Shown: in pieces, positions 1 to 38,245 of the stretch | Layout: the number at the start of each line of letters is the position of its first letter | Numbering within the stretch: position 1 is the stretch's first letter | DNA from: a virus | Virus record (IMG/VR): IMGVR_UViG_3300020463_000003 | Location: 1 to 38,245 of that record | Length of the DNA: 38,245 nucleotides | Strand: one strand, 5' to 3' | The notes under the pieces: model-generated | Told to the model about the DNA's origin: nothing | Databases searched by the model: none | The model's input: the letters and a program-made list of their open reading frames with translations, nothing else | Translations under genes and position numbers: made by a program

Positions 1-77
1 AAGAAATGTGTGATCGGGGGTATGATTCCCGACAACGAAAAGTCCAGTTAAATATTCAGAAGGGTAAAGAATCAGAG
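1..77. repeat. Terminal direct repeat, left copy (circular closure)
   Basis: Identical to 38169-38245. Overlapping the two copies keeps the RNA polymerase frame open across the join, so the sequence is a circle or a circularly closed assembly of 38,168 bp. A length of exactly 77 is a common assembler k-mer size, so this is more likely an assembly overlap than the biological terminal repeat. Confidence 0.95.
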
Positions 78-2369
78 AATGATTATGCCAGAAGCATGAT
101 CGCTGCTGGTCTTGCACCATTATCAAAATCAATACAGTCTTTTATTAATAGGGCTTGGAGGGGAAAACCAGGCCCGAAGGCTATTGCTGCTGTAAGGTTG
201 TCAGAATTTCCTGATATTGATGTTGTTGCTTACATCTCTTTTAAGGCAATCATTGATGGTGCATCACAGGGTAATACAGCCACACAGATAGCCATACAAA
301 CAGGGCATTTGTTAGAAGATGAGATGCGGTTCAGTGTCTTTGAGGAAAGCGATAAACGACATTTCACTGCGGTAAAAAAACATATCACTGATACAACTCA
401 TCCACGTTATAGACGCAATATGATGATAGGTCATATGAATAGTCGAGGGTTTATTTTTAAACACTGGGCAAAGGAAGAGAAGCTACGCATTGGCATGAAA
501 CTATTGGATCTTCTTATTAATACGTTAGGTATGGTTAAGGTCGTATCAAAAAGAATGGGAAGGACTACACAAAACTATGTGGAGTTTACGGAAAGTATTA
601 ACGAATGGATGAAGAGACAAAGGGTAAATAGGTTTGCAAGCTATCCAATCTATATGCCCTGTGTAGAACAACCTATCGAATGGTCTAGCACCATTGATGG
701 TGGGTTTCATAGTAAAAGACTGCAACATATCAAAGCTATTAAGAGTAGGGATCTCTCTTACTTAGAAGAAGTATCAGAGAAAAAACCAACAGCATTTTTT
801 CAAGCACTAAACTCTCTACAGAATACGCAATGGGAAGTGAATACAAGTGTTCTTGAAATTGCTCAAAGCTGTTGGGATAGAAGTATAGAAGTGGGTTGTT
901 TAATTGATGCTGAAACATTGCCACTACCACCAAAACCATTTGATATTGATATTAATGAAGACGGAAGATTGAAGTGGAGAAAGGCAGCCAGCTTAATCCA
1001 TGATCAGAACGCACACGACAGGATGAAACGATTTCAATGTTTAACTTTGTTAGATACTGCACTGTATTACAAAGATGGTCCTTTTTATCATGTATGGCAA
1101 GCAGATTTTACCGGACGAATCTATCCGGTAGCAGCAGTCTTCAATCCACAGGGTAATGATCTATCCAGAGGACTACATAGGTTCCATAATGGTGCAGCCA
1201 TTAATGATGAAAAGGCAAAGAATTGGTTGGGGATAGCAGGGGCTAATCACTGGGGCATGAGTCGTTCTAGTTACACCGAAAGAATAGAGTGGGCTAATAC
1301 AGAAGGGGCAGCACTGGCAAGACAGGTGGCTAGCAATCCAGAAGCGACTGTTAGTTTATGGGCAAATGCTGACGAACCATTTCAGTTTGTGGCCTGGTGT
1401 ATTGAATGGGCTGATCTGTTGGATGAAGGGTTTGGGTTTATATCAAAACATCCTGTTCTGTTGGACGGCACTAACAATGGGTATCAACACTTTGCCGCCA
1501 TGACCTGTGATGAAGAGCTTGCTGCCAAAGTAAATCTTATTAAGTCTGATGAGGTAAAGGATCTTTATGATGAAGTAAGGGCAGAATTATTAACTGATCT
1601 TGCTGATAGTGAAGACCTGTTAGCTGTGGAGTGGTTTGAGAATAAGGAAGTTATTACTAGAAAGCTGGTTAAAAGACCAGTAATGGTCATTCCGTATAGT
1701 GGTACGTTATTTGGAATTACAAAAGCAATCAAAGAATATTTATATAAACATGATGTAGATCTACCTTGGGAAAAAGATAGCTTTGCACATAACTATTTTC
1801 TAGCCAGAAAAATTGTTCAGACTGTTAAAAAAGTATGTCCAAAGTCATCAACCATTATGGAATATTTAACAGACATTGCTAAATGTTATGGCAATGAACA
1901 TAAAACAATTAAGTGGAATACACCTTCTAAGTTTTATGTGAATCAGAATTATTTCATCCAAAATAGTAAACAAATAAGGACTAAAATAGGCACCAGCACT
2001 GTGTACTTGTCACTTAATGAACAGACAGATGAAGTGAATGGTAATAAATCTACAAGAAGTTTTGCTGCTAACTTTGTCCATAGTTTAGACGCTGCTAATG
2101 TACATTTAGCCCTTGAGAAAAGTCATAAAAAAGGCTTGAAGAATATCACAACAATTCATGATTGTTTTGGTTCTACTGCTGCTGATATAGAAGAATTTAT
2201 TTCTTCCGTAAAAGAATCTTTTGTTGAAATGTACACCTTTAATGTATTGGATGATCTATACGATCAATCCGTACAACAACTTAATAAACCTAGAAAATTA
2301 CCGACACCACCAGATTTAGGGGATTTTAATATCTGTGAAGTCTTGGATGCACCATATGTATTTAGCTGA
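6..2369 (+). CDS. T7-like single-subunit RNA polymerase (main part; 5' end at 38144)
   Basis: DNA-dependent RNA polymerase of the T7 gp1 family, which transcribes the phage middle and late genes. Here 787 residues are read; ten more (starting MSKQEQVEKE) lie at 38144-38173, giving 797 against 883 in T7. Visible motifs: the DFTGRIYPV and FNPQGND block around residue 360-385; motif A, LLDGTNNGYQHF, with catalytic Asp487; motif B, KRPVMVIPYSG, with Lys556 and Tyr564 (T7 Lys631 and Tyr639); motif C, IHDCFG, with Asp719 (T7 Asp812). All catalytic residues are present. The ATG at 6 is an internal Met of the full gene. It lies directly downstream of integrase and attP and heads the replication block. 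Confidence 0.97.
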   Translation: MCDRGYDSRQRKVQLNIQKGKESENDYARSMIAAGLAPLSKSIQSFINRAWRGKPGPKAIAAVRLSEFPDIDVVAYISFKAIIDGASQGNTATQIAIQTGHLLEDEMRFSVFEESDKRHFTAVKKHITDTTHPRYRRNMMIGHMNSRGFIFKHWAKEEKLRIGMKLLDLLINTLGMVKVVSKRMGRTTQNYVEFTESINEWMKRQRVNRFASYPIYMPCVEQPIEWSSTIDGGFHSKRLQHIKAIKSRDLSYLEEVSEKKPTAFFQALNSLQNTQWEVNTSVLEIAQSCWDRSIEVGCLIDAETLPLPPKPFDIDINEDGRLKWRKAASLIHDQNAHDRMKRFQCLTLLDTALYYKDGPFYHVWQADFTGRIYPVAAVFNPQGNDLSRGLHRFHNGAAINDEKAKNWLGIAGANHWGMSRSSYTERIEWANTEGAALARQVASNPEATVSLWANADEPFQFVAWCIEWADLLDEGFGFISKHPVLLDGTNNGYQHFAAMTCDEELAAKVNLIKSDEVKDLYDEVRAELLTDLADSEDLLAVEWFENKEVITRKLVKRPVMVIPYSGTLFGITKAIKEYLYKHDVDLPWEKDSFAHNYFLARKIVQTVKKVCPKSSTIMEYLTDIAKCYGNEHKTIKWNTPSKFYVNQNYFIQNSKQIRTKIGTSTVYLSLNEQTDEVNGNKSTRSFAANFVHSLDAANVHLALEKSHKKGLKNITTIHDCFGSTAADIEEFISSVKESFVEMYTFNVLDDLYDQSVQQLNKPRKLPTPPDLGDFNICEVLDAPYVFS

Positions 2370-2390: not shown

Positions 2391-3083
2391 ATGTACGATA
2401 ATATCAATGTTACGTCTACCGCAGACGATTTTAAAAGAAACTACAACAGAAATTTCCAAATGATTAAATCAGAAATTCTTAACATCACAACACCCGTATG
2501 TCTATTTCAATTTGCATGGTTAGTAGAACCTGACACTAAGTTTGATGCTTCTGGCATCTGGCAAGTTGAATGTCTTATCGACCCAGAAAAATCACAGCAA
2601 ACTGAAGAACAGTTAACAGGTCTTTTAGAAAGATGGAAGAGTCAGCTTAAAGCTGCCACTCCAAGCAAGAAGTTTAAGCTTGCTCCTTTACCTTGGGAGT
2701 ACACAGAAGTAGATGGGCAACCATACTTCAAAGTTAAAACCAAGATGAAAGGTGGTGGGGTAAGAGCAGACGGTACGCAGTGGAAACAACGACCTCCTGT
2801 TTTATTTAATCCTGACGGATCTCCTATGTCAGAAGATCAGAAGGAAAGGGTGAACAAATGTGGCCCTGGTACAACTGGACAAGTCAATATGCGTTGCAGT
2901 GGTTGGGAAACAGCAGCCTTTGGTGTTGGTATAAAAATCCAACCAGAAGCTGTCATCATCCACAACCATGTCGAATACAACAAAACCGCACAAGGCTACG
3001 GCTTTGAAACAGAAGAAGCAATCGTTGAAGAGAAGCCCAAAGTCCAAGGCTTTGAGACAGTCTCATCAGGGACTGAATTTTAG
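2391..3083 (+). CDS. Single-stranded DNA-binding protein, T7 gp2.5-like
   Basis: 230 residues, the length of T7 gp2.5 (232). It should coat ssDNA during replication and recombination. The family call rests on size, on position between RNA polymerase and endonuclease I, and on the C-terminal tail: about seven acidic residues in the last 26, ending in Phe as in T7 gp2.5, where the tail and final Phe contact partner proteins. The core has an OB-fold-like alternation (FQFAWLVEP, WQVECLIDPE). A later Met at residue 24 could be the start, but it has no ribosome binding site; a weak AAGGGA lies upstream of the chosen ATG. The 3' end overlaps the gp3-like ORF by up to 116 bases. Confidence 0.8.
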   Translation: MYDNINVTSTADDFKRNYNRNFQMIKSEILNITTPVCLFQFAWLVEPDTKFDASGIWQVECLIDPEKSQQTEEQLTGLLERWKSQLKAATPSKKFKLAPLPWEYTEVDGQPYFKVKTKMKGGGVRADGTQWKQRPPVLFNPDGSPMSEDQKERVNKCGPGTTGQVNMRCSGWETAAFGVGIKIQPEAVIIHNHVEYNKTAQGYGFETEEAIVEEKPKVQGFETVSSGTEF

Positions 3084-3453
3084 AAGCAAGTTTGAAGCTG
3101 GAATAGCAGCTACATTACATGCAAATAAAATTCAATTTACTTATGAAACACTCGATATTAACTACAAAATCAGTTGCGTTTATAAGCCTGATTTCATCCT
3201 TGACAACGGCATCTGTATTGAAACTAAGGGCTTCTTCTCAAAAGAGGACCGCAGAAAACATATTGCGATCAAGACGCAAAGACCCGAACTAGATATACGT
3301 TTCTGTTTTCAGAACAGTAAAGCAAAATTGAGTCGTGGCAAAAGAAGTTTAACCTATGGTGCTTGGGCAACCAAGCATGGTTTTCTCTGGAGTCATGGCT
3401 CTATCCCAGAAGAATGGTATGAACAGCAACAGCAAATATGTAAGAAAGACTAG
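2968..3453 (+). CDS. Endonuclease I (Holliday-junction resolvase), T7 gp3-like
   Basis: Homologue of T7 endonuclease I, which cleaves branched DNA and degrades host DNA. Catalytic residues are visible at T7-like spacing: Glu43 (RSKFE), Asp75 (YKPDF), Glu85 and Lys87 (IETKG); the stretch PELDIRF also matches T7. The first 35 residues are very basic and lie over the acidic gp2.5 tail in another frame, which makes that N-terminus doubtful. No ribosome binding site precedes the ATG at 2968. TTG codons at 3025 or 3052 would give an N-terminus closer to T7. The 3' end overlaps the primase-helicase start by 35 bases. Confidence 0.88.
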   Translation: MSNTTKPHKATALKQKKQSLKRSPKSKALRQSHQGLNFRSKFEAGIAATLHANKIQFTYETLDINYKISCVYKPDFILDNGICIETKGFFSKEDRRKHIAIKTQRPELDIRFCFQNSKAKLSRGKRSLTYGAWATKHGFLWSHGSIPEEWYEQQQQICKKD

Positions 3454-5026
3454 CTGCCCTGAATGTGGCAGTAAAGATAACATGGCGATCTATGACGATG
3501 GACATGGATATTGTTTTGGTTGCAGTTTTACATTACAGCCAGAGAAAGAGAAACCCAGAAAAGCTTTTATCAAGACAGTGAAGAAACCATTACTAAAATT
3601 TGTTAATCCAAAACCTTTACCAAAACGTGGCTTGACCCAAGAAACTTGTGAACTGTTTGGCTATGGAATATCAGAACATCAGGGAGTTCCGGTACAGGTG
3701 GCAACCTATGAAGATAAGTTAGGTAGGCAAGCAGCACAGCATATAAGATTTCAGAACAAAAAGTTTATCTGGGTGGGTGATGTAACAGAACTACAGCTAT
3801 GGGGGCAGAGGCTTTGGAGACAACAGAATACAGGTAATATGTTTGTCACCATCACAGAGGGAGAGATAGATTGCATGTCTGTCTCACAGGCACAAGGTAA
3901 CAAGTATCCGGTGGTAAGTTTGCCTTCTGGTTCACAGTCGGCTAATAAATATATAGCTGCGAATTTAAAATGGTTATCTCAATTTGTACGAATAGTAATC
4001 TGTTTTGACAGTGACGAGCCTGGCATGGCTGCTGCCGAAAAAGCAATTAAAATCTTACCTGCTGGTAAGGCAGCTATATGTAGACTCCCTAGAAAAGACG
4101 CTAATGAAATGCTCCTCGCAGGGGAAGAGAAGGAACTTAGAAAACTATTATTCCAAGCAACACCTGTTAGACCAGATGGAATACTTAATGCCTCTAATCT
4201 CTGGGAAGAACTAACCAAAAAAGGAACTAACAGCGTTTGTCCTTTTCCTTACCCAAAGCTAGATGAGTTTACAAAGGGCTTTCGTAAAAGTCAGATGATA
4301 ACGATAGCAGCAGGTAGTGGTACAGGTAAATCGACTATCTGTAGAGAACTAGCACATCACTTTCTTAAGAATAAACTGACGGTTGGTTACATTGCTTTGG
4401 AAGAGAGTGTACAAAGAACAATGCAGGGGATACTCGGTGTAGAGATGAATAAACCCCTGCACCTAGAGGATAATGTAGAAGAAACAGAAGGGTTAAAACA
4501 ATCCTTTGACAAACTGTTTGGTTCAGAAAAACTATTCTTATATGATCACTTCGGATCTATGGACCCTGACAGGTTGATAGAACAGATCACCTATCTTGCA
4601 ACAGCAGAAAATGTAGATGTAGTGATATTGGATCATCTAACAATAGTAGTCTCTGGGATCGCAGATGTAGATGAGAGAAGAGCTATTGATATTGCGTGTA
4701 CAAAATTACGACAGGTCGTTGAATCTACTGGTATAGGTTTAATCCTTGTCAGCCATCTGAGAAGACCTCAAGGCGTGTCGCATGAACAGGGAAGCACTGT
4801 TAGCACTTCAGATCTAAGAGGTAGCTCTGGAATATTACAGCTATCAGATCTATGTATTAGTGCAGAAAGAAATCAGCAGTCGGAAAGCTATGCAGAGAGA
4901 GCAGAACTACAGCTACGAGTATTGAAGAATAGACATACAGGAATGACAGGGCCGATAGATAAATTATTGTATGACCAAAGCACAGGGAGGCTAGTCGTAC
5001 CCATGTCCACCTACTTTGGAAACTAA
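3419..5026 (+). CDS. Primase-helicase, T7 gp4-like
   Basis: Bifunctional primase and hexameric 5'-3' helicase of 535 residues (T7: 566). In order: a zinc-binding domain with Cys13, Cys16, Cys32 and Cys35; a TOPRIM domain (ITEGEID, then ICFDSDEPG and KDANEM); Walker A GSGTGKST at residue 299; Walker B VVILDH; and the sensor region LRGSSGILQLSD...ERNQQ seen in T7. I chose the ATG at 3419, which puts the zinc finger at the usual distance, over the in-frame ATG at 3356, which lies deeper in gp3. The acidic C-terminal tail that lets T7 gp4 contact its DNA polymerase is missing; the protein ends PMSTYFGN. The stop overlaps the next ATG (TAATG). Confidence 0.93.
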   Translation: MNSNSKYVRKTSCPECGSKDNMAIYDDGHGYCFGCSFTLQPEKEKPRKAFIKTVKKPLLKFVNPKPLPKRGLTQETCELFGYGISEHQGVPVQVATYEDKLGRQAAQHIRFQNKKFIWVGDVTELQLWGQRLWRQQNTGNMFVTITEGEIDCMSVSQAQGNKYPVVSLPSGSQSANKYIAANLKWLSQFVRIVICFDSDEPGMAAAEKAIKILPAGKAAICRLPRKDANEMLLAGEEKELRKLLFQATPVRPDGILNASNLWEELTKKGTNSVCPFPYPKLDEFTKGFRKSQMITIAAGSGTGKSTICRELAHHFLKNKLTVGYIALEESVQRTMQGILGVEMNKPLHLEDNVEETEGLKQSFDKLFGSEKLFLYDHFGSMDPDRLIEQITYLATAENVDVVILDHLTIVVSGIADVDERRAIDIACTKLRQVVESTGIGLILVSHLRRPQGVSHEQGSTVSTSDLRGSSGILQLSDLCISAERNQQSESYAERAELQLRVLKNRHTGMTGPIDKLLYDQSTGRLVVPMSTYFGN

Positions 5027-5757
5027 TGACTTTACTAATTGATGCTGATTGGCTTTTGTATTCCTCATGCTGTGCCTGTGAACAGGACATAAAATGGGAT
5101 GACAATCTACATACTCTGCATGCTGATGAAAGAGATGTCCATGAAATGATTGATGGCAGAGTCTCTTATTACCAGACTATTGCTGAAGGAGATAAGGATG
5201 TTGTCATGTGCTTTACTGAGTACCCGACATTCAGACATACAATATATCCAGAGTACAAAGCTAATAGAAAGCATAAAAGAAAACCTTTAGCCTTTAAGAA
5301 AGTAGTAGAACAGGTAAGAGATAAGTACGAATCAAAAAGTTTTGATGGATTAGAGGGTGATGATGTTATGGCTTTACTTGCAACATCTAAACAGTACGAC
5401 AACCCAATAATAGTTTCAGTCGATAAGGACATGAGATCTGTACCCTGCACCCTGCTGGCAGGTGATGACCTAGAACTTATAACCAAACGTAAGGCTGATC
5501 GACATTGGATGAAGCAAGCCCTTACAGGGGACAGTACAGATAACTATTTTGGTATAGATAAAGTAGGACCAGTAACAGCAGAGAAGATACTGGGTGAATC
5601 TAAAACACTAGAACAAATGTGGGAGAAGGTAGTAGCTGCGTATGAGAAAAAGAAATATGACTTTGCTGATGCTGTATTAAATGCACAGCTTGCAAGAATA
5701 CTGAGACATGGAGACTTTGATTACAAGACAGGTGAAGTATCTCTCTGGACTCCTTAA
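5026..5757 (+). CDS. 5'-3' exonuclease, T7 gp6-like
   Basis: 243-residue member of the 5'-nuclease (FEN/PIN-like) family. T7 gp6 removes RNA primers and resects DNA. Metal-binding acidic residues are visible: Asp6 and Asp8 (LIDADW), Glu110, Asp112 and Asp113 (LEGDDVM), Asp133 and Asp135 (VDKD), Asp169 and Asp172 (TGDSTDNY). A helix-hairpin-helix-like stretch follows (GIDKVGPVTAEKIL), and YKANRK is shared with T7. It is shorter than T7 gp6 (about 300). Its start overlaps the gp4 stop by one base, so in this genome it occupies the place where T7 carries the DNA polymerase gene. A terminator follows directly. Confidence 0.9.
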   Translation: MTLLIDADWLLYSSCCACEQDIKWDDNLHTLHADERDVHEMIDGRVSYYQTIAEGDKDVVMCFTEYPTFRHTIYPEYKANRKHKRKPLAFKKVVEQVRDKYESKSFDGLEGDDVMALLATSKQYDNPIIVSVDKDMRSVPCTLLAGDDLELITKRKADRHWMKQALTGDSTDNYFGIDKVGPVTAEKILGESKTLEQMWEKVVAAYEKKKYDFADAVLNAQLARILRHGDFDYKTGEVSLWTP

Positions 5758-5912: not shown

Positions 5913-6116
5913 ATGTCATCTGAAAAGCTACCAGTTATTACAGATGAATTGATTTTTGCCTTAGATCAAATTTTTCCTAATCGTCATCCTGATTTGTCAT
6001 TAACTGATAGAGAGGTATGGTATAGAGCAGGGCAACGGTTTGTTGTTGATTATCTTATCGAACAACAAGCTAGGCAAAAAGAAACAATGCTCACCGAATC
6101 AGTCTTGGAGAATTAG
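5913..6116 (+). CDS. Small conserved-position protein upstream of the portal
   Basis: 67 residues, acidic and probably helical, beginning MSSEKLPVITDELIFALDQI; no membrane segment and no motif that I recognise. It is the first gene after the terminator and promoter-like region and lies three bases from the next small virion-block gene. T7 has several small gene 7-series products at this place. Function unknown; a virion assembly or early late-phase role is only inferred from position. Confidence 0.7.
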   Translation: MSSEKLPVITDELIFALDQIFPNRHPDLSLTDREVWYRAGQRFVVDYLIEQQARQKETMLTESVLEN

Positions 6117-6118
6117 TC

Positions 6119-6358
6119 ATGTGTATTTTTTCATCACCTAAACCACCACCTTTACCTGAACCTAGACCAACTGCACCTAAACCAGAGAAGACTGCTCAAC
6201 GTGTAGTCGTTGGACAACAAAGAGTTGGACCACAAAGGTCTGAAGGAAAAAGAAGAGGAAGAAAATCAATAAGAAATGTTAGAAGATTAGGTACATCTTC
6301 TTTACGAATACCTTTATTAGATCAAGGACAAATGGGATCAGGTAATCTTAAGTATTAA
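6119..6358 (+). CDS. Proline- and arginine-rich virion assembly protein, T7 gp7.3-like
   Basis: 79 residues. The N-terminus is proline-rich (KPPPLPEPRP) and begins MC; the centre is basic (GKRRGRKS); the C-terminus has GTSSLRIPL. The basic-serine C-terminal pattern and the place just before the portal match T7 gp7.3 (99 residues), a small virion protein needed for tail assembly and adsorption. Low-complexity composition limits the homology argument. It ends three bases before the portal start. Confidence 0.7.
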   Translation: MCIFSSPKPPPLPEPRPTAPKPEKTAQRVVVGQQRVGPQRSEGKRRGRKSIRNVRRLGTSSLRIPLLDQGQMGSGNLKY

Positions 6359-24391: not shown

Positions 24392-27300
24392 ATGGCTGCT
24401 TTTGATTTTCCATCTAGTCCTAGCAATGGTGACACATATAATTTAAATGGTGTCGATTATACTTATAACGGTACAGTCTGGAAAAAAACATCTTCTGGTA
24501 ATTTAATAAGTGATGGTGACAGAGGAGATGTCGTTGTTAGTAATTCAGGTGAAACTTTTACAATTGATAATGAATCTATTACTTATACAAAAATACAAAA
24601 CGTATCATCAACAGATAGAGTTTTAGGTCGAGATACTAGTGGTGCTGGAGAAATTGAAGAGATAACTCCAAGTAATTTACGCACCATGATTAACGTGGCA
24701 GATGGAGCAGAAGTTAATGTTAATGCTGATTGGAATAGTAGCAGTGGTGATAGTCAAATATTAAACAAACCAACTGTTCCATCTAATATTGGTGATTTAG
24801 GTAATGTAAGTAATTCGACACCATCAGCTAATCAAGTACTTAAATGGAATGGTTCTGTTTGGTCACCTGCCGAAGATAATAGTGGTAGTGGAGCAACAGA
24901 TTTAAGCAATACAGCTAATGGAACATCCTTAACAATAGAATCATCATCAGGTAATAATACATCTCTACCTGCTGCGACTACATCAGCTTGGGGTGTGATG
25001 ACAGATGATGATAAAAGTAAATTAGATGCAATAGAACCTAGTGCAGATGTTACTGATGAAACCAATGTAAATGCAGCAGGGGCTGTAATGAACAGTGACC
25101 TTGATGGTAAAGGTGAACTTCTTGTTGGAGATGGGTCAGGAGATCCTACTGCTTTAGGTGTTGGTACTAATGGTTATGTTTTAAAGGCTAATAGTAGTAC
25201 TGCTACAGGTCTTGAGTGGTCTGCTGCTGGAAGTGGTGGAGATGCAAACCAAAATGCTTTTTCTACTATTGCAGTTTCAGGTCAATCAGACGTAGCTGCT
25301 GATAATGCAACTGATACTTTAAATATTGCTGCTGGTAGTAACGTTACTGTTACAACTAATGCTAGTAGTGATACTGTTACTATTTCTTCTACAGATACCA
25401 ACACTACTTATAGCGTTGGAGATGGTGGTCTTTCACAAAATAACTTTACTGATGCGTTAAAAAATAAACTTGATGGTATATCTGCAAGTGCAAACGTAGG
25501 TCTTACTAATCTTGTTGGTGACACTACACCGCAACTAGGTGGTGATTTAGATATGAACAGTAAGTTTATATCCAGTGGTATTTTAGGTGTTAAAAATACT
25601 GGAACACAATCTGAATTACGTCTTTACTGTGAATCAAGTAACGCTCATTATGCAAGTATAAAAGCCCCTGCTCACGCTGATTTTTCTGGAAATATCACCT
25701 ACACTTTACCTTCAGCATATGGGTCTAACGGTCAAGTTTTAAAGTCAAATGGGTCTGGTGGTCTTGATTGGGTAGATCAATCAGGTGGTGGTGCTACAGA
25801 TAAAATTAGTGAAGGTAATACTGAAGCAGAAACAGTTGATACTGGTTCTGATGGTCACTTTAAAGTCACCACAGAAGGAACTGAAAGATTAAGAGTCGCA
25901 GCAAATGGAAACGTAGGTATTGGATCTTCTACACCAGGAGAACTTTTACAAATCTATGATGCGTCTGGTAATCCAACAATTCATGTAAGGGCTAATAATC
26001 AAAACACCGCTTCATTAAAATTTGAAAATGATGATGGTGATTGGACTATATCTTCTGGTACTTCTAGTTATCCTCTAAAGTTTGCAGTTGGTGGTAGTGA
26101 TAAATTTACAATATTAAATGATGGAAAGGTTGGTATTGGTACTACTTCACCTTCAACAGTATTAGAAGTAAACGGTAGTTTTAAAGCAGGTGGTCTTGCA
26201 TATCCAACCTCTGATGGTTCTGCTAACCAAGTACTAAAAACAGATGGCAGTGGAACCCTTAGCTTTGTAGATCAATCAGGTGGAGGAGGTGGTGGTGGTT
26301 TAAGTTCTGATTCTCAGTACAACACTGTAGGAGGAACAAATGCAGGGGATAGCTTTACAGGAACAGATGCAGAAGGTAATACTCTAATTGGGTATGACGC
26401 TGGTACTGCTATTACAACTGCTGATGACAATACTTGTTTAGGGTTTGATGCCGGTAAAGCATTGACTACAGGTGGCAGTAATACTTTTGTAGGAGCAGAA
26501 GTAGGAGAGACTTGTACAACAGGGTCTCAAAACATTTGTGTAGGAAGAAGATCAGGACAATCTTTAACTACAGGTTTTAACAATATTTTTATAGGAAGGC
26601 AAGCTGGTCAAAATACTACCGAGGGAAACGATAATGTTAGTATTGGTACGTATGCTTTATTAAATAATCAAACAGGAATTCGTAATACTGTTGTTGGCAG
26701 TAATAGTGGTAGAGCTATAACAACTGGTACTGAAAGTTGTTTCTTTGGCGCATACGCAGGTTATTCTCTAACAACTGGTAGTCATAATAATTCTTTTGGC
26801 TATCAGGCAGGTTATTCTCTAATATCTGGTGCTCATAATAATTTCTATGGCAAACAATCAGGATATAATTGTACAACTGGTCATAGAAATACTGGTTATG
26901 GAAATAACACTTTATTAGCTCTAACTACGGGTCAAAGAAATACAGGAATTGGTTATTCGTCTGGAAAAGATTTAACTACAGGTTATTACAACACGTTTTT
27001 GGGTTACTATGCTGGAAATAATACTACAACAGGTGAAAATAACATTTGTATTGGTTATCAAGCAACAACAAGCAGTGCCACAGTTGATAATGAAGTAACT
27101 ATAGGCGATAGTAATGTTACCAAATTCAGAATTCCTGGTCTTAACTTTGTAGTAAAAGATTCTACAGCTACTAATGGACACGTACTGACAGTCGATGCTA
27201 ATGGTGAAGCTGGTTTCGCAGCAGCCAGTGGTGGTGGTGGTTCTTTGGAATATGTTAGTACAACTACAATATCATCTGATAATTCTACAGCACAGATCGA

Positions 27301-27733
27301 TCTTACAAGTTTAGATACTAACGCTATATATAAAATAATTGCTAGAAAAATTAAGTTTTCAGGTAGTGGCAGTACATTAAGAATAAGATTTTTAGACTCT
27401 AGTGGTAATTATCAAAGTAATATTAATTATTGGAGAGAAAAAGGAAGAGATAATGGACAGGAATTTAGTAATCAAAACTATATAATGTGTGATACAGATG
27501 GAAGTACTCAATACATGAGTTTTATTGCTGAACTGCATACACCAGCTATTTTTAATTGGCTATATTTTAATGGTTATCCCCCACAAGAACAGGATAATAG
27601 ATGCGATATTTATGCCTCCTTTAGTTCCAGTAATACTAGCGGAACTATAAATGGTATTAGATTCTATATGGAATCTGGATACTATTTTCAGTCTGGTACT
27701 GAAATTTTACTTTACAAATACAAAATGAGCTAA
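24392..27733 (+). CDS. Second long tail fibre/adhesin with 17-residue repeats
   Basis: 1113 residues. The N-terminus (FPSSPSNGDTYNLNGVDYTYNG, a bin-like FPxxPxxGDxY motif) is common in cyanophage fibre proteins. Repeated segments NQVLKWNGSVWS and NQVLKTDGSGTLSFVDQSG follow, and ERLRVAANGNVGIGSSTPGE is a frequent fibre shaft motif. Residues about 661-905 consist of some fourteen 17-residue repeats (NTxxGxxAGxxLTTGxx). After that comes a C-terminal domain of about 155 residues, probably a beta-sandwich, without an S74 chaperone. The stop overlaps the following chaperone gene. It may be a side fibre or alternative receptor-binding protein; its virion place is inferred. Confidence 0.88.
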   Translation: MAAFDFPSSPSNGDTYNLNGVDYTYNGTVWKKTSSGNLISDGDRGDVVVSNSGETFTIDNESITYTKIQNVSSTDRVLGRDTSGAGEIEEITPSNLRTMINVADGAEVNVNADWNSSSGDSQILNKPTVPSNIGDLGNVSNSTPSANQVLKWNGSVWSPAEDNSGSGATDLSNTANGTSLTIESSSGNNTSLPAATTSAWGVMTDDDKSKLDAIEPSADVTDETNVNAAGAVMNSDLDGKGELLVGDGSGDPTALGVGTNGYVLKANSSTATGLEWSAAGSGGDANQNAFSTIAVSGQSDVAADNATDTLNIAAGSNVTVTTNASSDTVTISSTDTNTTYSVGDGGLSQNNFTDALKNKLDGISASANVGLTNLVGDTTPQLGGDLDMNSKFISSGILGVKNTGTQSELRLYCESSNAHYASIKAPAHADFSGNITYTLPSAYGSNGQVLKSNGSGGLDWVDQSGGGATDKISEGNTEAETVDTGSDGHFKVTTEGTERLRVAANGNVGIGSSTPGELLQIYDASGNPTIHVRANNQNTASLKFENDDGDWTISSGTSSYPLKFAVGGSDKFTILNDGKVGIGTTSPSTVLEVNGSFKAGGLAYPTSDGSANQVLKTDGSGTLSFVDQSGGGGGGGLSSDSQYNTVGGTNAGDSFTGTDAEGNTLIGYDAGTAITTADDNTCLGFDAGKALTTGGSNTFVGAEVGETCTTGSQNICVGRRSGQSLTTGFNNIFIGRQAGQNTTEGNDNVSIGTYALLNNQTGIRNTVVGSNSGRAITTGTESCFFGAYAGYSLTTGSHNNSFGYQAGYSLISGAHNNFYGKQSGYNCTTGHRNTGYGNNTLLALTTGQRNTGIGYSSGKDLTTGYYNTFLGYYAGNNTTTGENNICIGYQATTSSATVDNEVTIGDSNVTKFRIPGLNFVVKDSTATNGHVLTVDANGEAGFAAASGGGGSLEYVSTTTISSDNSTAQIDLTSLDTNAIYKIIARKIKFSGSGSTLRIRFLDSSGNYQSNINYWREKGRDNGQEFSNQNYIMCDTDGSTQYMSFIAELHTPAIFNWLYFNGYPPQEQDNRCDIYASFSSSNTSGTINGIRFYMESGYYFQSGTEILLYKYKMS
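26372..27105 (+). repeat. About fourteen 51-bp repeats coding a YadA-head-like solenoid
   Basis: Successive 17-codon units share N-[TNI]-x-x-[ILVY]-G-x-x-[AS]-G-x-x-[LT]-T-T-G-x, for example SNTFVGAEVGETCTTGS and QNICVGRRSGQSLTTGF. Small residues at fixed places suggest a tight left-handed beta roll like that of trimeric autotransporter heads. Confidence 0.85.
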
Positions 27734-28906: not shown

Positions 28907-29590
28907 ATGCCTACGATTAAAGTTCCTGAGATAACGATACCAACTGTAGATATTCCTTCTGTACCTTTTGTTAGTGATAATGTTCTTACAGGTTTACAAC
29001 CTGCCTGTGATCTTGTTAATAGAGATTTAAAAATAACTCAGAATCCAACTATTGTATTTTATAACCGTAAGCAATATGCAACCTGTCCACAGGGGCCGAT
29101 AACAACTACAACTCCTGTAGAAGAAGATAAAACAACCGCACCAAAAGCAGAAAAACAACAGTTCAGATCTATTGTCTACGATCCTAATGACACTATAGAA
29201 ACTGAAAGTTCTTCTAGATATACAGAAGGCATCCCACTTAAAGGTGTGTTTATGTCACAGGGAGAAGAAAAGAAAGAAGAACAAGAACCACCACCTTGTC
29301 CAGACTTATCAAGAGTATTACCTGTAGGAAGTTTTACCTCAGATCTGCGAACCTCAAGAATTAAAGAGTATATTAGAGCAGATAATGGATATGATTGTGT
29401 CCCGATTCTTGAAGAAGTCACTTTCCTTAAATCAGTATTACCTACGTCTTCTGCTGCTCTTAATATTGTTGCTGTGTCTTTCATTGCTTCCACTACTCCA
29501 TTACTTATTCCTGTAATAAAAGCAGCCTCTAAAACTTTTTTTAAAAATGTCATTAAAAAACTGACAAAGAAAAAAGAAAAGCTAGAATAA
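28907..29590 (+). CDS. Membrane-associated cyanophage protein, unknown
   Basis: 227 residues. N-terminal IP/VP repeats (IKVPEITIPTVDIPSVPF) are followed by a domain with conserved-looking Cys residues (QPACDLV, YATCPQG), a disordered Thr/Glu/Lys region, a second Cys-containing part (PPPCPDLSRVLP), then a membrane segment near 180-205 (AALNIVAVSFIASTTPLLIP) and a very basic end (KKLTKKKEKLE). The layout, with a C-terminal TM and lysine tail, resembles proteins in cyanophage genomes that I recall without function. Last plus-strand gene before a convergent minus-strand operon. Confidence 0.8.
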   Translation: MPTIKVPEITIPTVDIPSVPFVSDNVLTGLQPACDLVNRDLKITQNPTIVFYNRKQYATCPQGPITTTTPVEEDKTTAPKAEKQQFRSIVYDPNDTIETESSSRYTEGIPLKGVFMSQGEEKKEEQEPPPCPDLSRVLPVGSFTSDLRTSRIKEYIRADNGYDCVPILEEVTFLKSVLPTSSAALNIVAVSFIASTTPLLIPVIKAASKTFFKNVIKKLTKKKEKLE

Positions 29591-29629: not shown

Positions 29630-29670
29630 GGTAGGCAAGCTCACCTAAACTTGTCTACCGCTTTAATTTA
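29630..29670 (+). terminator. Second hairpin at the convergent junction
   Basis: GGTAGGCAAG (29630-29639) pairs with CTTGTCTACC (29650-29659), ten pairs including one G-U, loop of ten, followed by GCTTTAATTTAT. It would serve the plus-strand genes. It contains the stop codon of the minus-strand gene. Confidence 0.55.
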
Positions 29671-30425
29671 TGAGCATGCGGTAATATTTGATCTGGAATC
29701 GTGGTTAATACAACATTACGGCAAGATATAGCATCATCTCCAACAAACTTAATACCCTCCCTCAACATAGCCCCACAAACCTTGGCACGATTAAGATTTA
29801 CCTCTAAACGTTTAGCCTCCAACATAAACTCCTGTGTCTTTCTATGAGCCTGTGCAGCCTTCAAACACTCTTGATTAAAACTTTTACCTAAAGGAATTTG
29901 AAAACTTAAAGTCGCTCCATAAGATAAGTTATGGTTCGTCTGATCTATTCTTTCCTGTTCTGCGACATACAAAATACTCCCAGGGTTAAGCAACTGACCT
30001 GTATCACTATCCGTTGTAGTGTCATATATATTGGTTCGTGATTTATTAATTCGGGGAGTATCGAACCCTTCTCCTTTAGTAATAAAAGGAGTGAAAGCCA
30101 ATGTTGGTAACTGACATTGTATTCCGTTTGAAAATCTATGAGTTGGAAAGTTTCCATTTATCGTTTGATACCCATTATTTATTACCGTTCCAGAAGATTG
30201 AGAGGAGGGCGAGCTTATTGTTGTACTGGCATATGTAGGACTTGAAAATAATAAAGCTACTGAAATAGCGTGACAGAATCTTGCACAGTTTCTATTGTTT
30301 GATTTCTGGTTATAACTGACACTGCGTCTAAACCTGGTGCTAAAAAGTTTTCCATTATTGAGAAGTCTGAAGAATTTGGAACCATTTCCCATTGAGGTTT
30401 GGTTGGTAGATCTGGTGTTACCCAT
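29655..30425 (-). CDS. Probable exported protein, last gene of the minus-strand operon (start uncertain)
   Basis: Up to 256 residues. A signal-peptide-like stretch sits at residues about 46-66 (ARFCHAISVALLFSSPTYAS), with a likely cut after TYA. The mature part has NGIQCQLPTLAFTPF and the C-terminal YGATLSFQIPLGKSFNQECL, then charged helix and CGAMLREGIKF...ISCRNVVL; this end resembles minus-strand proteins of cyanomyophages, from memory. The annotated ATG lies 169 bases inside the upstream gene in the -1 frame and has no ribosome binding site; there is no ATG, GTG or TTG nearer the signal peptide. The start may be noncanonical, far upstream, or the two frames may be joined. Confidence 0.65.
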   Translation of the reverse strand: MGNTRSTNQTSMGNGSKFFRLLNNGKLFSTRFRRSVSYNQKSNNRNCARFCHAISVALLFSSPTYASTTISSPSSQSSGTVINNGYQTINGNFPTHRFSNGIQCQLPTLAFTPFITKGEGFDTPRINKSRTNIYDTTTDSDTGQLLNPGSILYVAEQERIDQTNHNLSYGATLSFQIPLGKSFNQECLKAAQAHRKTQEFMLEAKRLEVNLNRAKVCGAMLREGIKFVGDDAISCRNVVLTTIPDQILPHAHKLKR

Positions 30426-30685
30426 TGAAAACTAACTTTACCTGTACTTTGACTTGTTGTATATGTTGCATCAGGTGAGATGACAGAACCATCTTTAACT
30501 TGGATATTTGTACCAGAAACACTGTAGCTATAGCCTGTCCTATAGTTTTCAGTGACGATAGTTTCGTTAATTGTACTGATACTTTTACTTGTTGATTGCA
30601 TCTGGTTAGCAGCAAATCTAGGAGTTGTAGCTTTTGCATCTGAACTATAAAAAGCGATAAACAAAAGCAATAACCATCTCATCAA
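30257..30685 (-). CDS. Exported protein with signal peptide, unknown
   Basis: 142 residues. MMRWLLLLFIAFYSSDAKA is a clear signal peptide with probable cleavage after AKA. The mature chain is Ser/Thr-rich with YSYSVSGTNIQVKDGSV and NFLAPGLDAVSVITRNQTIE. Its start overlaps the upstream stop as ATGA, so translation is coupled. No enzymatic motif. The 3' 169 bases overlap the annotated start region of the next gene. Confidence 0.8.
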   Translation of the reverse strand: MMRWLLLLFIAFYSSDAKATTPRFAANQMQSTSKSISTINETIVTENYRTGYSYSVSGTNIQVKDGSVISPDATYTTSQSTGKVSFQWVTPDLPTKPQWEMVPNSSDFSIMENFLAPGLDAVSVITRNQTIETVQDSVTLFQ

Positions 30686-31206
30686 TCCAAGCCAAGAGTA
30701 ATACTGGTTTGAAGAGTAGCTGTTGTACCAGCACCCATATCAGCCAAGTTAACAGTGAACGCACCACCACTATCCATTGTGATTGCTACAGAACCAGGAT
30801 CTCCACCTGCAATTACTGTGTTCTTACCAAGTAAAGGAAGAGAAGGAACAGCACCGTTAGTTACTGTGGCAGATAGTAAACTTGGAACTGCATCTGCTGA
30901 AATATAGGATTCTGATACAGAGAACGCATCACCAGCAGTAGTAATTGAAAAAGAAGTGTCTGCTGAAACTACTGGAACACCATTAGATATACCATTGCTA
31001 CTAAGATTTAGAGATCCTATTCCACCTGCTGTGCCGTCATTTGGCGTTACATTCGTACCAGCAACACTAATAGATGCTGCAATCCTTTCTGAAGTTGCAC
31101 TAGCACCTAGAGTAGATACGCTTGCTACTGACTGGATTGAATGTGTGATGTCTGCGAAACTAGCTGTTGGAAATGCTAGTAAAAGCAAGGGTAATAGTTT
31201 TTTCAT
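30682..31206 (-). CDS. Exported beta-rich protein with signal peptide, unknown
   Basis: 174 residues. Signal peptide MKKLLPLLLLAFPTASFA with cleavage likely before DITHS. The mature part is Ser/Ala/Val/Gly-rich, almost free of Lys and Arg, with repeating beta-strand-like segments (ISVAGTNVTPNDGTAGGIG, TDSGGAFTVN-like MDSGGAFTVNLAD), as in secreted or surface beta proteins. It is coupled to both neighbours by ATGA overlaps. Destination (periplasm, outer membrane or virion) cannot be decided. Confidence 0.82.
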   Translation of the reverse strand: MKKLLPLLLLAFPTASFADITHSIQSVASVSTLGASATSERIAASISVAGTNVTPNDGTAGGIGSLNLSSNGISNGVPVVSADTSFSITTAGDAFSVSESYISADAVPSLLSATVTNGAVPSLPLLGKNTVIAGGDPGSVAITMDSGGAFTVNLADMGAGTTATLQTSITLGLD

Positions 31207-31598
31207 TTTTTGGGATCAACAATTTCTGCACCAATAATTTTAATTGGTGTTTCTATTCTAACTGTCTGATAACCACCTGACTGTGACGCTAGTAACGCTT
31301 CTACTTCTTTCTTATTTAGTGGCTTTTCATCAGGTTTAAACGTACCATCACCACGTTTCTTTGCTCCTTCCAAGCCAAAACTAGCTAACGCACCTGTCAG
31401 TAAAGAAGCTGGAAACGTTATATCTTTTGGTTCGTTACTGTAACCAGGTAAAGAAATGTAGTTGAGCGATACTATAAAGCCACTCCAAGCAACAACACTA
31501 AGTCTTACGATTACAGATATAAAAGCTAGTTGCTCTTCCTTATCAGTAATGTTTTCCTTCAGTTTTTGAAGAGGTCCTTTCTTTTCTTTTTCGTCCAT
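31203..31598 (-). CDS. Small membrane protein heading the minus-strand operon (holin-like?)
   Basis: 131 residues from the ATG at 31598, chosen because AAAAAGG lies just before it; in-frame ATGs at 31616 and 31625 lack a ribosome binding site. A charged N-terminus (DEKEKKGPLQKLKENITDKEE) precedes a membrane segment (AFISVIVRLSVVAWSGFIVS), then a second, weaker hydrophobic stretch (ITFPASLLTGALASFG) and a soluble C-terminus. Two hydrophobic segments would be compatible with a holin, but topology alone is weak evidence. It is divergent from the next plus-strand gene with about 45 bases between starts. Confidence 0.7.
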   Translation of the reverse strand: MDEKEKKGPLQKLKENITDKEEQLAFISVIVRLSVVAWSGFIVSLNYISLPGYSNEPKDITFPASLLTGALASFGLEGAKKRGDGTFKPDEKPLNKKEVEALLASQSGGYQTVRIETPIKIIGAEIVDPKK

Positions 31599-31643
31599 AC
31601 ACCTTTTTTCTGTCATAATAGGCATAAATAGAGGATTTGAAAA

Positions 31644-35273: not shown

Positions 35274-35852
35274 ATGGAAACAGTATTAACTGTTGAGGAA
35301 ACTAATAAGTTAAGTATCTCTCAACAAATAGAAAAGCTATCAATGAAACTATTAGATCAGGATAGAGAAGACCTAGCTGAGTTTAATAAGATCATTGAGT
35401 TTTTAAAGCCATACGAGGGTAAGAAACTAACTAAAACAGTATTAAGGAAACTTAATATATTTTTAGATAGACCATATAAAAAGACCGAGTATGGGGAGTG
35501 TATGAATAGTAAAGCTTATTTTCCTAGACAAATATGTAATAACTCATGTTCTTATATATCTCGACTAGACTATTCCAACTCAGGGGGTAGGCAAGGTTTA
35601 GAAATACTATTAAGTCATTCTGAAAAATGCCCAGTAATAAATATTAATTTTATTATTGAAGAAAATCCTTGCTATTCAAAAACATTACAAAAACAAATAG
35701 GAAAAGCTACAAGTCTTTTAAGTTATAGAAAACATAAAGAACTAGCTAAAAGGTGGGATAAATTAAATAATGCTATGTATGAATACAAGAAATTATTTGA
35801 TGAGTTCCCTCATAAATACGCTTTATCCGAACTAGGACTGAAAGACTTTTAG
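35274..35852 (+). CDS. First early-region protein, unknown
   Basis: 192 residues. No family recognised. Visible: a helical N-terminus (ISQQIEKLSMKLLDQDREDL), a central part with several Cys (GECMNS, QICNNSCSYIS, EKCPVI, ENPCYS) that could form a zinc site, and a basic helical C-terminus (YRKHKELAKRWDKLNNAMYE). It is the first gene after the non-coding block, where T7 has host-takeover genes. A host-interaction role is only suggested by position. Confidence 0.75.
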   Translation: METVLTVEETNKLSISQQIEKLSMKLLDQDREDLAEFNKIIEFLKPYEGKKLTKTVLRKLNIFLDRPYKKTEYGECMNSKAYFPRQICNNSCSYISRLDYSNSGGRQGLEILLSHSEKCPVININFIIEENPCYSKTLQKQIGKATSLLSYRKHKELAKRWDKLNNAMYEYKKLFDEFPHKYALSELGLKDF

Positions 35853-36457: not shown

Positions 36458-36634
36458 ATGTCAGATTATCCGTACAACCTTACAGCGATAGCTACGCATT
36501 TAAGGGAGCTTGCACAGTCTATTGCCAGTAAACTAGACATCAGCGAGGATGATGCGTGGGATCTGTGCCTAGAAAAGCTAGATACAAAACTAATCCAATT
36601 AAGAAACCAGGATAAAGATGATCCAATGTCCTAA
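36458..36634 (+). CDS. Small early protein, unknown
   Basis: 58 residues, MSDYPYNLTAIATHLRELAQ, then SIASKLDISEDDAWDLCLEK. Helical; the LDISEDDAWDL segment could be a helix-turn-helix-like pair but is too short to claim. It has an AGGAGGTAG stretch shortly upstream (36444-36452), a good ribosome binding site, and its end overlaps the zinc-ribbon gene by 17 bases. Confidence 0.65.
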   Translation: MSDYPYNLTAIATHLRELAQSIASKLDISEDDAWDLCLEKLDTKLIQLRNQDKDDPMS

Positions 36635-36878
36635 CTGCAGAAGTGTTGAAACTATTTCACACCAAGCAAGGCAAAGACCTAATGCAAACTATGTTTGGAG
36701 GTCAAGAACTTGTAAAGAATGTCGTAAGACTTTTAGCACAAGAGAATACAGCTTGGAGGAACTTGCTAAATTAATTGATGAGGATGAGGAATCTGTCGTA
36801 GATTTACGCAATCAATGTGATGATCTATTACAAGACCTATCTGAATTGATAACCCAGTACAAAGTATCAAATGACTAA
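36618..36878 (+). CDS. Zinc-ribbon protein resembling the NrdR N-terminal domain
   Basis: 86 residues. CPNC (Cys4, Cys7) and CKEC (Cys32, Cys35) flank a basic segment (ARQRPNANYVWRSRT), followed by RKTFSTREYS. This matches the DNA-binding zinc ribbon of NrdR (CPxC...RRRRxCxxCxxRFTTYE), but the ATP-cone that senses dATP is absent; instead there is an acidic helical tail. Probably a DNA-binding regulator or host-transcription modulator. AGGA lies five bases before ATG. It overlaps both neighbours. Confidence 0.78.
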   Translation: MIQCPNCRSVETISHQARQRPNANYVWRSRTCKECRKTFSTREYSLEELAKLIDEDEESVVDLRNQCDDLLQDLSELITQYKVSND

Positions 36879-37008
36879 CGTAGTAAACCTTACAAAGTAC
36901 AGATATGATCGTGAAAAAGCGATTGATGAACGTATAGAAAATGCTGAGGCAAGAATTGATGAATTAAATTTATTGATTTATGCCTGGAAGATATTAAAAA
37001 AAACTTGA
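36871..37008 (+). CDS. Small coiled-coil protein before the integrase
   Basis: 45 residues, MTNVVNLTKYRYDREKAIDE, then RIENAEARIDELNLLIYAWK. One amphipathic helix with heptad spacing. The start overlaps the zinc-ribbon stop by eight bases and the stop codon lies in the -35 element of the putative integrase promoter. No family recognised. Confidence 0.6.
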   Translation: MTNVVNLTKYRYDREKAIDERIENAEARIDELNLLIYAWKILKKT

Positions 37009-37031
37009 CTTTTTAAATTAGTTTGTATTAA
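37005..37031 (+). promoter_or_regulatory. Candidate promoter of the integrase
   Basis: TTGACT (37005-37010, 5 of 6 to the -35 consensus) and TATTAA (37026-37031, 4 of 6 to the -10), spacing 15. The spacing is short. It lies about 40 bases before the integrase start, the only intergenic gap in this part. Confidence 0.4.
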
Positions 37032-37071
37032 AACTGATTCTCATTCTTAACTACTACTAAAGGAGTATTCC

Positions 37072-37956
37072 ATGCCCAGAGGAATCCCGCAGTCGAGATG
37101 CCCACGTTTATCTCAGGCTGTAAGAACTGTATATAACAGACGCAAACGTGGAACGCCTGACGCTGATTATTACATCATGCGTATGAACCATAACATCAAA
37201 GCTATAGGTGATCTGCCTGTCAGTCAGATAACAGAACCGCTAGTTAATGTTTTGATTGATTATCACAGGGAAACCTTTGATAACTCTAATAAAACTATTA
37301 ATAAAAAAGTATCTGCGTTGAAGATTACATTGGAGGAAATGTCTTCTGATGGTCATATAGCGATGATTAAATTTCCAAAAAGGTTAAAGGAAACAAAAGG
37401 TAGGACGCATTACTTTACTCAATGTATGGAAGATGATTTGTTAAGCACCTTTTTACATTGGGGTCTTTATGAACATCATGATTTTGTTAAGTGCCTTATG
37501 GATACAGGTGCAAGACTGAGTGAGTTGTTCGGATTGGAAAAAAGGTATGTGGATTTTAATTTAAATCAGATAACTTTTCCTGATCGTAAATGCGATAACC
37601 CTGTAAGTGTTCCTATGACTGATGAGGTGCAGAAGATACTACGACCTTATTATCTGAAAGCTAGACCTACTGACAAGCTCTTCCCTTACAGTAGCTATTG
37701 GCTGAGAACTATATGGAATAGGGTAAGAGATCATCTTGGCTATACAGATAAAGATTGGTATGTACCGCACCTATGTAGACATACTTGTGCAACTAGGTTA
37801 GTGCAGAGGGGTGTTCCTTTAGGTGTTGTAAAGGATTGGATGGGGCATGAATGTATTCAGGCAACCATGATATATGCTCATCACGCACCGAAACAGTTGC
37901 ATGAAGCTGTAAAGGTGCTAAATACTAAAGAATCCAGTACATCTATAGCGTCTTAG
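37072..37956 (+). CDS. int: Tyrosine-recombinase integrase
   Basis: 294 residues, a typical length for a short phage integrase. Catalytic residues visible: Arg148 (TGARLSEL), Lys173 in the beta hairpin, His233 and Arg236 (PHLCRHTCATRL), His259 (MGHECIQATM), and nucleophile Tyr268 (MIYAHHAP). An N-terminal SAM-like helical domain lies near 35-110. AAAGGAG at 37059-37065, six bases before ATG, is one of the best ribosome binding sites in the genome. It should catalyse integration at a host tRNA-Leu gene through the attP 74 bases downstream. All residues are intact, so it can be active. Confidence 0.96.
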   Translation: MPRGIPQSRCPRLSQAVRTVYNRRKRGTPDADYYIMRMNHNIKAIGDLPVSQITEPLVNVLIDYHRETFDNSNKTINKKVSALKITLEEMSSDGHIAMIKFPKRLKETKGRTHYFTQCMEDDLLSTFLHWGLYEHHDFVKCLMDTGARLSELFGLEKRYVDFNLNQITFPDRKCDNPVSVPMTDEVQKILRPYYLKARPTDKLFPYSSYWLRTIWNRVRDHLGYTDKDWYVPHLCRHTCATRLVQRGVPLGVVKDWMGHECIQATMIYAHHAPKQLHEAVKVLNTKESSTSIAS

Positions 37957-38029
37957 ATGATGTTAATGAGATGCTTACTGTTACCTACGATTTTATATTT
38001 AAGTCTTTGTTTTATCTGCGGATTAAGAA

Positions 38030-38087
38030 GACTTAAAATCCAGAGACTGTAATGGTCGTGCCGGTTCGAGTCCGGCCACTCGCACCA
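38030..38087 (+). other. attP: 3' half of a tRNA-Leu(UAA) gene
   Basis: The segment reads from the anticodon loop (GACTTAAAATCC, anticodon TAA) through a long variable arm (GAC/GTC stem), a complete T arm (GCCGG-TTCGAGT-CCGGC), the 3' acceptor strand CACTCGC, A and CCA. No matching 5' half exists here: upstream bases do not complete the anticodon stem. This is how integrases that target tRNA genes rebuild the tRNA after insertion. Host tRNA should begin GCGAGTG. Confidence 0.88.
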
Positions 38088-38131
38088 CTCTGGGAGGGTA
38101 GCAGTAAGTAACTCAAATTGTTAATTAAAAC

Positions 38132-38137
38132 AAGGAG
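38132..38137 (+). promoter_or_regulatory. Ribosome binding site of the RNA polymerase gene
   Basis: AAGGAG, six bases before the ATG at 38144, which decides the true start of the polymerase gene across the sequence break. Confidence 0.85.
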
Positions 38138-38143
38138 TTATTT

Positions 38144-38245
38144 ATGAGCAAGCAAGAACAGGTAGAGAAAGAAATGTGTGATCGGGGGTATGATTCCCGA
38201 CAACGAAAAGTCCAGTTAAATATTCAGAAGGGTAAAGAATCAGAG
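38144..38245 (+). CDS. RNA polymerase, 5' end (continues at base 6)
   Basis: Partial: the frame starts MSKQEQVEKEMCDRGYDSRQ and runs off the end of the window. After overlapping the 77-base repeat, base 38174 equals base 6 in the same frame, adding ten residues to the main part for a total of 797. A strong ribosome binding site supports this start. The polymerase lies 56 bases after attP, so integration at attP would separate it from the integrase and the early genes. Confidence 0.93.
   Translation, partial: MSKQEQVEKEMCDRGYDSRQRKVQLNIQKGKESE
38169..38245. repeat. Terminal direct repeat, right copy
   Basis: Identical to bases 1-77; see the left copy. It lies inside the RNA polymerase gene, not in an intergenic place where a packaging end is expected. 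Confidence 0.95.

What the first reader, a model, noticed from the sequence alone, without database searches (positions are those of the whole stretch)
4990..5060. No DNA polymerase gene: gp4 is fused head-to-tail with gp6
Seen: gp4 ends and gp6 starts in a TAATG overlap, exactly where T7 carries gene 5, and no ORF elsewhere is large enough and unassigned to be a polymerase. gp2.5, gp3, gp4 and gp6 are all kept. Known: T7 relatives almost always carry a family A polymerase; a polymerase-less lineage of marine cyanopodoviruses has been described, as I recall. Inference: this phage uses a host polymerase (PolI or PolIII) with its own helicase-primase, a hybrid replisome worth studying.
Basis: partly seen in the sequence, partly recalled or inferred. 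Interest (0 to 1): 0.88.

Follow-up and report, generated by a model that had tools for sequence, protein, structure and literature searches.

The report
Cyanophage lacking its DNA polymerase gene
This ocean virus of cyanobacteria has no DNA-copying enzyme of its own, a trait already published for the MPP-C cyanophages; what is added here is that its genome is complete and that its helicase has also lost the acidic tail that normally grips the viral polymerase, so it probably copies its DNA with the host's enzyme.

Summary
The gp4 stop (TAA, 5024-5026) overlaps the gp6 start (ATG, 5026-5028), where T7 relatives carry gene 5. No family A, B or C polymerase is found. The window closes as a 38,168-bp circle (77-nt exact terminal repeat), so nothing is hidden off the ends. 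It is a new member of the published MPP-C lineage (Cai et al. 2022, PMC9860041), whose authors already proposed host PolI or PolIII. What I add: (1) among 195 distinct gp4 sequences, the 60 polymerase-less ones form one clade (one change, support 100), with a high-GC branch outside the isolates; (2) gp4 itself is remodelled. Polymerase-bearing relatives end in an acidic tail, usually aromatic-terminated (112 of 135, median net -5), which in T7 docks the polymerase. None of the 60 polymerase-less gp4s does (median net -1), whereas gp2.5 keeps its terminal Phe in 46 of 46; (3) no unassigned gene of polymerase size is shared across the clade, which argues against a hidden divergent polymerase. 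Most likely: phage helicase-primase and ssDNA-binding protein with the host PolIII holoenzyme, coupled without the T7 tail contact. Which host polymerase is used is not shown.

The parts
5024..5028 (+). gp4/gp6 junction: TAA stop overlapping ATG start (TAATG); gene 5 absent
   Evidence: same junction in 16 relatives
3419..5026 (+). gp4-type helicase-primase, 535 aa (ORF open from 3356); C-terminus TGRLVVPMSTYFGN, no acidic Phe-terminated tail
   Evidence: phrog_239 E 1e-168; Pfam DnaB_C, Toprim_2, Helic-prim_T7_N; start by alignment; tail comparison
5026..5757 (+). gp6-type 5'-3' exonuclease, 243 aa
   Evidence: phrog_107 E 4e-58; PF02739, PF01367
2391..3083 (+). gp2.5-type ssDNA-binding protein; C-terminal Phe retained (...SSGTEF)
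   Evidence: phrog_112; tails
2968..3453 (+). gp3-type endonuclease (overlaps gp2.5)
   Evidence: phrog_945 E 6e-43
1..2369 (+). T7-type RNA polymerase; first codons lie at window 38144 onward across the circular closure (797 aa in full)
   Evidence: phrog_414
38169..38245 (+). exact copy of window 1-77: terminal repeat that closes the genome at 38,168 bp
37072..37956 (+). tyrosine integrase
   Evidence: phrog_1 E 5e-39

Best explanation
The window is the complete genome of a cyanopodovirus of the MPP-C (polymerase-less T7-like) lineage. Gene 5 was lost once, in the ancestor of a clade that kept RNA polymerase, gp2.5, gp3, gp4 and gp6. Shown: absence of gene 5, a single clade, and concerted remodelling of the gp4 C-terminus, from a long acidic, usually Phe/Tyr-terminated tail to a short, near-neutral one. 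Inferred: the phage helicase-primase unwinds and primes, gp2.5 covers single strands, gp6 removes primers, and DNA is synthesised by a recruited host polymerase. I think the clamp-tethered PolIII holoenzyme most likely (about 60%), because it does not need the T7 tail-to-basic-patch contact for processivity and naturally works with a 5'-3' DnaB-family helicase on the lagging strand; host PolI is second (about 30%).
For: No polymerase family hit in the closed genome, nor family A in 15 polymerase-less relatives including the isolates P-SCSP1u and P-SCSP2, while all five polymerase-bearing controls ring. gp4-gp6 spacing in the clade is -4 to +3 nt in 55 of 67 loci and at most 884 nt, versus a median of 2.6 kb (minimum 1,855) in polymerase-bearing relatives. 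One change on gp4 trees, support 100 (the second tree leaves the tail out). gp4 tail: 112 of 135 polymerase-bearing proteins end in F/Y, median net charge -5; 0 of 60 polymerase-less, median net -1. In T7 that tail binds basic patches on gp5 (PMC8472574, PMC12593628, PMC5997990). gp2.5 terminal Phe kept in 46 of 46, so the change is specific to gp4. MPP-C phages have long latent periods (PMC9860041), as expected of dependence on the host.
Against: The tail contrast is one evolutionary event (one clade), so the correlation between tail and polymerase loss rests on n = 1. 23 of 135 polymerase-bearing gp4s also lack a terminal aromatic, so the tail is not strictly required. No clamp-binding-like motif was found in the clade's gp4 or, with a simple pattern, in any window protein; nothing in the sequence positively identifies PolIII. 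All function is inferred.
Confidence: 0.85

Rival explanations
1. Host DNA polymerase I replaces gp5: it is the same family A and is recruited to the phage helicase, as Cai et al. list first.
For: gp5 is a family A enzyme related to PolI; the remainder of the T7 replisome set is kept.
Against: If PolI simply took the gp5 seat, the gp4 docking tail should be kept; it is lost in all 60 distinct sequences. PolI is mainly a repair enzyme (PMC9860041).
Confidence: 0.27
2. A very divergent polymerase is encoded by an ORF called unknown.
For: Listed as possible by Cai et al.; two unassigned ORFs of 192 and 227 aa exist at 35274-35852 and 28907-29590.
Against: Neither of these two is found in any of 13 clade relatives examined, several of which are partial loci; the unassigned genes with relatives in both P-SCSP1u and P-SCSP2 are only 67, 77 and 87 aa. 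Six-frame profile searches are negative, as are family searches of the unassigned ORFs.
Confidence: 0.04
3. The missing gene is an assembly deletion or lies outside the contig.
For: The record is a metagenome contig.
Against: The genome closes exactly; the same junction is present in 16 other contigs and the equivalent adjacency in sequenced isolates.
Confidence: 0.01
4. The loss of the gp4 tail is unrelated drift and says nothing about how the host polymerase is coupled.
For: A single clade; a minority of polymerase-bearing relatives also have short tails.
Against: Every one of 60 distinct sequences is short and near neutral across diverged sub-branches, while the equivalent tail of gp2.5 is kept in 46 of 46.
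Confidence: 0.35

Closest known systems
MPP-C cyanopodoviruses (P-SCSP1a-u, P-SCSP2; Cai et al. 2022, PMC9860041)
   Same: T7-like layout, no DNA polymerase gene, gp4 directly followed by gp6, genome near 38 kb, no auxiliary metabolic genes recognised, integrase as in P-SCSP2
   Different: A separate sub-branch: gp4 57-61% and RNA polymerase 27-45% identical to the isolates; no sequenced isolate of the sub-branch was found in the collections searched
Uncultured phage MedDCM-OCT-S08-C159 (Jalkavirus, GU943031)
   Same: gp4-gp6 adjacency already visible in this 10-kb record
   Different: 59% gp4 identity; partial record
T7 / MPP-A, MPP-B and P-RSP2 podoviruses
   Same: gp2.5, gp3, gp4, gp6 in the same order downstream of a phage RNA polymerase
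   Different: They carry gene 5 between gp4 and gp6 and a gp4 tail ending in DF

Membership tests
MPP-C cyanopodovirus clade | no recognisable DNA polymerase gene | tested here: met
MPP-C cyanopodovirus clade | core-gene phylogeny groups with P-SCSP1/P-SCSP2 | tested here: met
   gp4 trees only, support 100; the nine-core-gene tree of the paper was not built
MPP-C cyanopodovirus clade | none of psbA, hli, mazG, rnr, talC, thyX | tested here: met
   45 ORFs searched in PHROGs, none of these families named
MPP-C cyanopodovirus clade | small genome (37.3-37.9 kb in isolates) | tested here: met
   38,168 bp closed, slightly above the isolates' range
MPP-C cyanopodovirus clade | infects Prochlorococcus | not testable with these tools
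   tRNA-Leu(UAA)-like attachment site seen; no exact cyanobacterial match in genome contigs
Autographiviridae (T7-like) | own single-subunit RNA polymerase | tested here: met
   phrog_414 E 5e-195
T7-type replisome | family A DNA polymerase gp5 | tested here: not met
T7-type replisome | acidic C-terminal gp4 tail that couples helicase to polymerase | tested here: not met

The most novel reading that the evidence does not exclude
A T7-family helicase-primase that, after a single ancestral loss of gene 5, exchanged its acidic polymerase-docking tail for a short near-neutral C-terminus with a conserved internal Phe, and now drives a bacterial PolIII holoenzyme: a naturally evolved hybrid replisome in an abundant ocean phage lineage.
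Probability: 0.45. Interest if true: 0.72.

Novelty: new member of a known kind. Interest (0 to 1): 0.45.

Why it matters
MPP-C phages account for almost half of the cyanopodovirus reads in surface oceans (PMC9860041), and how they replicate their DNA is open. The co-loss of the polymerase and of the helicase tail that docks it gives a concrete, testable handle: the gp4 C-terminus is where coupling to the polymerase must have changed. The clade-wide gene inventory makes a hidden phage polymerase unlikely, leaving host PolIII or PolI.

Tried and rejected
Looked for clamp-binding-like motifs in gp4 (none in the clade) and, with a simple pattern, in all window proteins (none). Looked for gp4 diagnostic residues between the clades (only three columns). 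Suspected the 67-aa ORF after gp6 (5913-6116) as a lineage-specific recruiter: it is also in polymerase-bearing phages. Tried to name the host through the tRNA attachment core: no exact cyanobacterial match in genome contigs. Considered assembly deletion and incomplete contig: rejected. Two family searches failed because of frame errors and were replaced for the Mom insert only; the other inserts were not searched. No structure was predicted: the unassigned larger ORFs are not conserved in the clade, so they cannot be a shared replicase.

Full report
Observation. The gp4 stop codon (TAA, 5024-5026) overlaps the gp6 start (ATG, 5026-5028) in TAATG. The genes are adjacent, not fused. The alignment with relatives puts the gp4 start at 3419 (535 aa) rather than at the first ATG, 3356. 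gp4 has the DnaB-type helicase, Toprim and T7 helicase-primase N-terminal domains; gp6 has both 5'-3' exonuclease domains; gp2.5 and gp3 are recognised. Six-frame searches with the Pfam models of family A, C (DnaE) and B polymerases find nothing in the window while ringing in control genomes.

Completeness. The first 77 bases recur exactly as the last 77. Removing one copy gives a circle of 38,168 bp, and reading across the closure restores a full RNA polymerase of 797 aa starting at 38144. No stretch is left in which a polymerase could hide. The TAATG or TGATG junction recurs in 16 other contigs, and isolates P-SCSP1u and P-SCSP2 have the same adjacency, so an assembly deletion is excluded.

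What it is. The nearest named relatives are the MPP-C cyanopodoviruses, 18 isolates on Prochlorococcus MED4 described in 2022 as a lineage without a DNA polymerase gene (PMC9860041). That paper already proposes host PolI, host PolIII or an undetected divergent polymerase. The window is a new, separate sub-branch (gp4 57-61% identical to the isolates).

How far the loss extends. Three scans of IMG/VR with gp4 profiles, pooled with the reference phages, gave 148 loci with a polymerase, 67 without and 13 undetermined because the contig ends. The 60 distinct polymerase-less gp4s form one side of one branch against 135 polymerase-bearing ones (one change, support 100), with the C-terminal 30 residues removed before tree building (smaller mixture-model tree with the tail). 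In the polymerase-less clade the gp4-gp6 spacing is -4 to +3 nt in 55 of 67 loci; the other 12 have inserts of 214-884 nt, too small for gene 5, one of which encodes a Mom-family DNA-modification protein. In polymerase-bearing relatives the spacing is at least 1,855 nt, median 2.6 kb. Thirteen long polymerase-less contigs and both isolates lack DNA_pol_A anywhere; T7, P-SSP7, P-RSP2 and two metagenomic relatives have it. A high-GC branch (58-64%, L025-L032) lies outside the isolates.

Change in gp4. In T7 the acidic gp4 C-terminal tails bind basic patches on gp5 and raise replisome processivity (PMC8472574, PMC12593628, PMC5997990). Counting the residues after the conserved TGR column, polymerase-bearing relatives have a median of 16 residues, net charge -5, and 112 of 135 end in Phe or Tyr; the polymerase-less have a median of 11, net -1, and 0 of 60 end in an aromatic, although every one keeps an internal Phe such as in YFGN or FGEKL. 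The comparable tail of gp2.5 keeps its terminal Phe in 46 of 46 polymerase-less and 108 of 116 polymerase-bearing phages. So the polymerase-docking element of the helicase, not acidic tails in general, went with the polymerase. I did not find this in the 2022 paper: the words C-terminal and acidic do not occur in its main text. The caveat is that this is a single clade, hence one event.

No hidden polymerase. The unassigned window genes with relatives in both P-SCSP1u and P-SCSP2 encode 67, 77 and 87 aa; the two larger unassigned ORFs (192 and 227 aa) have no relative in any of 13 clade members examined, several of them partial loci. An essential replicase would be shared, so the third hypothesis of Cai et al. 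becomes unlikely.

Mechanism. Shown: loss of gene 5, retention of the rest, remodelled gp4. Inferred: phage helicase-primase and gp2.5 work with a host polymerase. PolIII is favoured because its clamp supplies processivity without a helicase tail and it works with a 5'-3' helicase of the DnaB family on the lagging strand (established knowledge of the bacterial replisome); PolI substitution in the gp5 seat would predict retention of the tail. No motif identifies the partner.

Verdict. Confirmed observation, supported inference, known lineage; moderate interest because of the co-loss of polymerase and helicase tail and the closed genome.

Noticed in passing
window 38030-38095: tRNA-Leu(UAA)-like 3' half including CCA between integrase and RNA polymerase, a likely phage attachment site; L022 has a similar one near 6336.
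   Followed up: partly
L004:3058-3753 and L005: Mom-family (PF25680) DNA-modification gene inserted exactly between gp4 and gp6 in phages whose gp4 is 99% identical to the window's.
   Followed up: partly
window 29655-31625, minus strand: Four minus-strand genes (phrog_848, 650, 564, 2714; DUF6322, DUF6450), some with signal-peptide-like starts, inside an otherwise mostly plus-strand genome.
   Followed up: no
window 24392-27733: Tail-fibre-like protein with a stretch 82% identical to P-SCSP1u although core proteins are only 26-62% identical, which suggests recombination.
   Followed up: no
L025-L032: High-GC (58-64%) polymerase-less relatives that branch outside the MPP-C isolates and may infect other cyanobacteria.
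   Followed up: partly
window 36618-36878: 86-aa ORF with an NrdR-like zinc ribbon just below the Pfam cut-off.
   Followed up: no
L005 near 5374-5401 versus window 37000-38168: A close relative lacks the integrase and attachment site at the position where the window carries them.
   Followed up: partly
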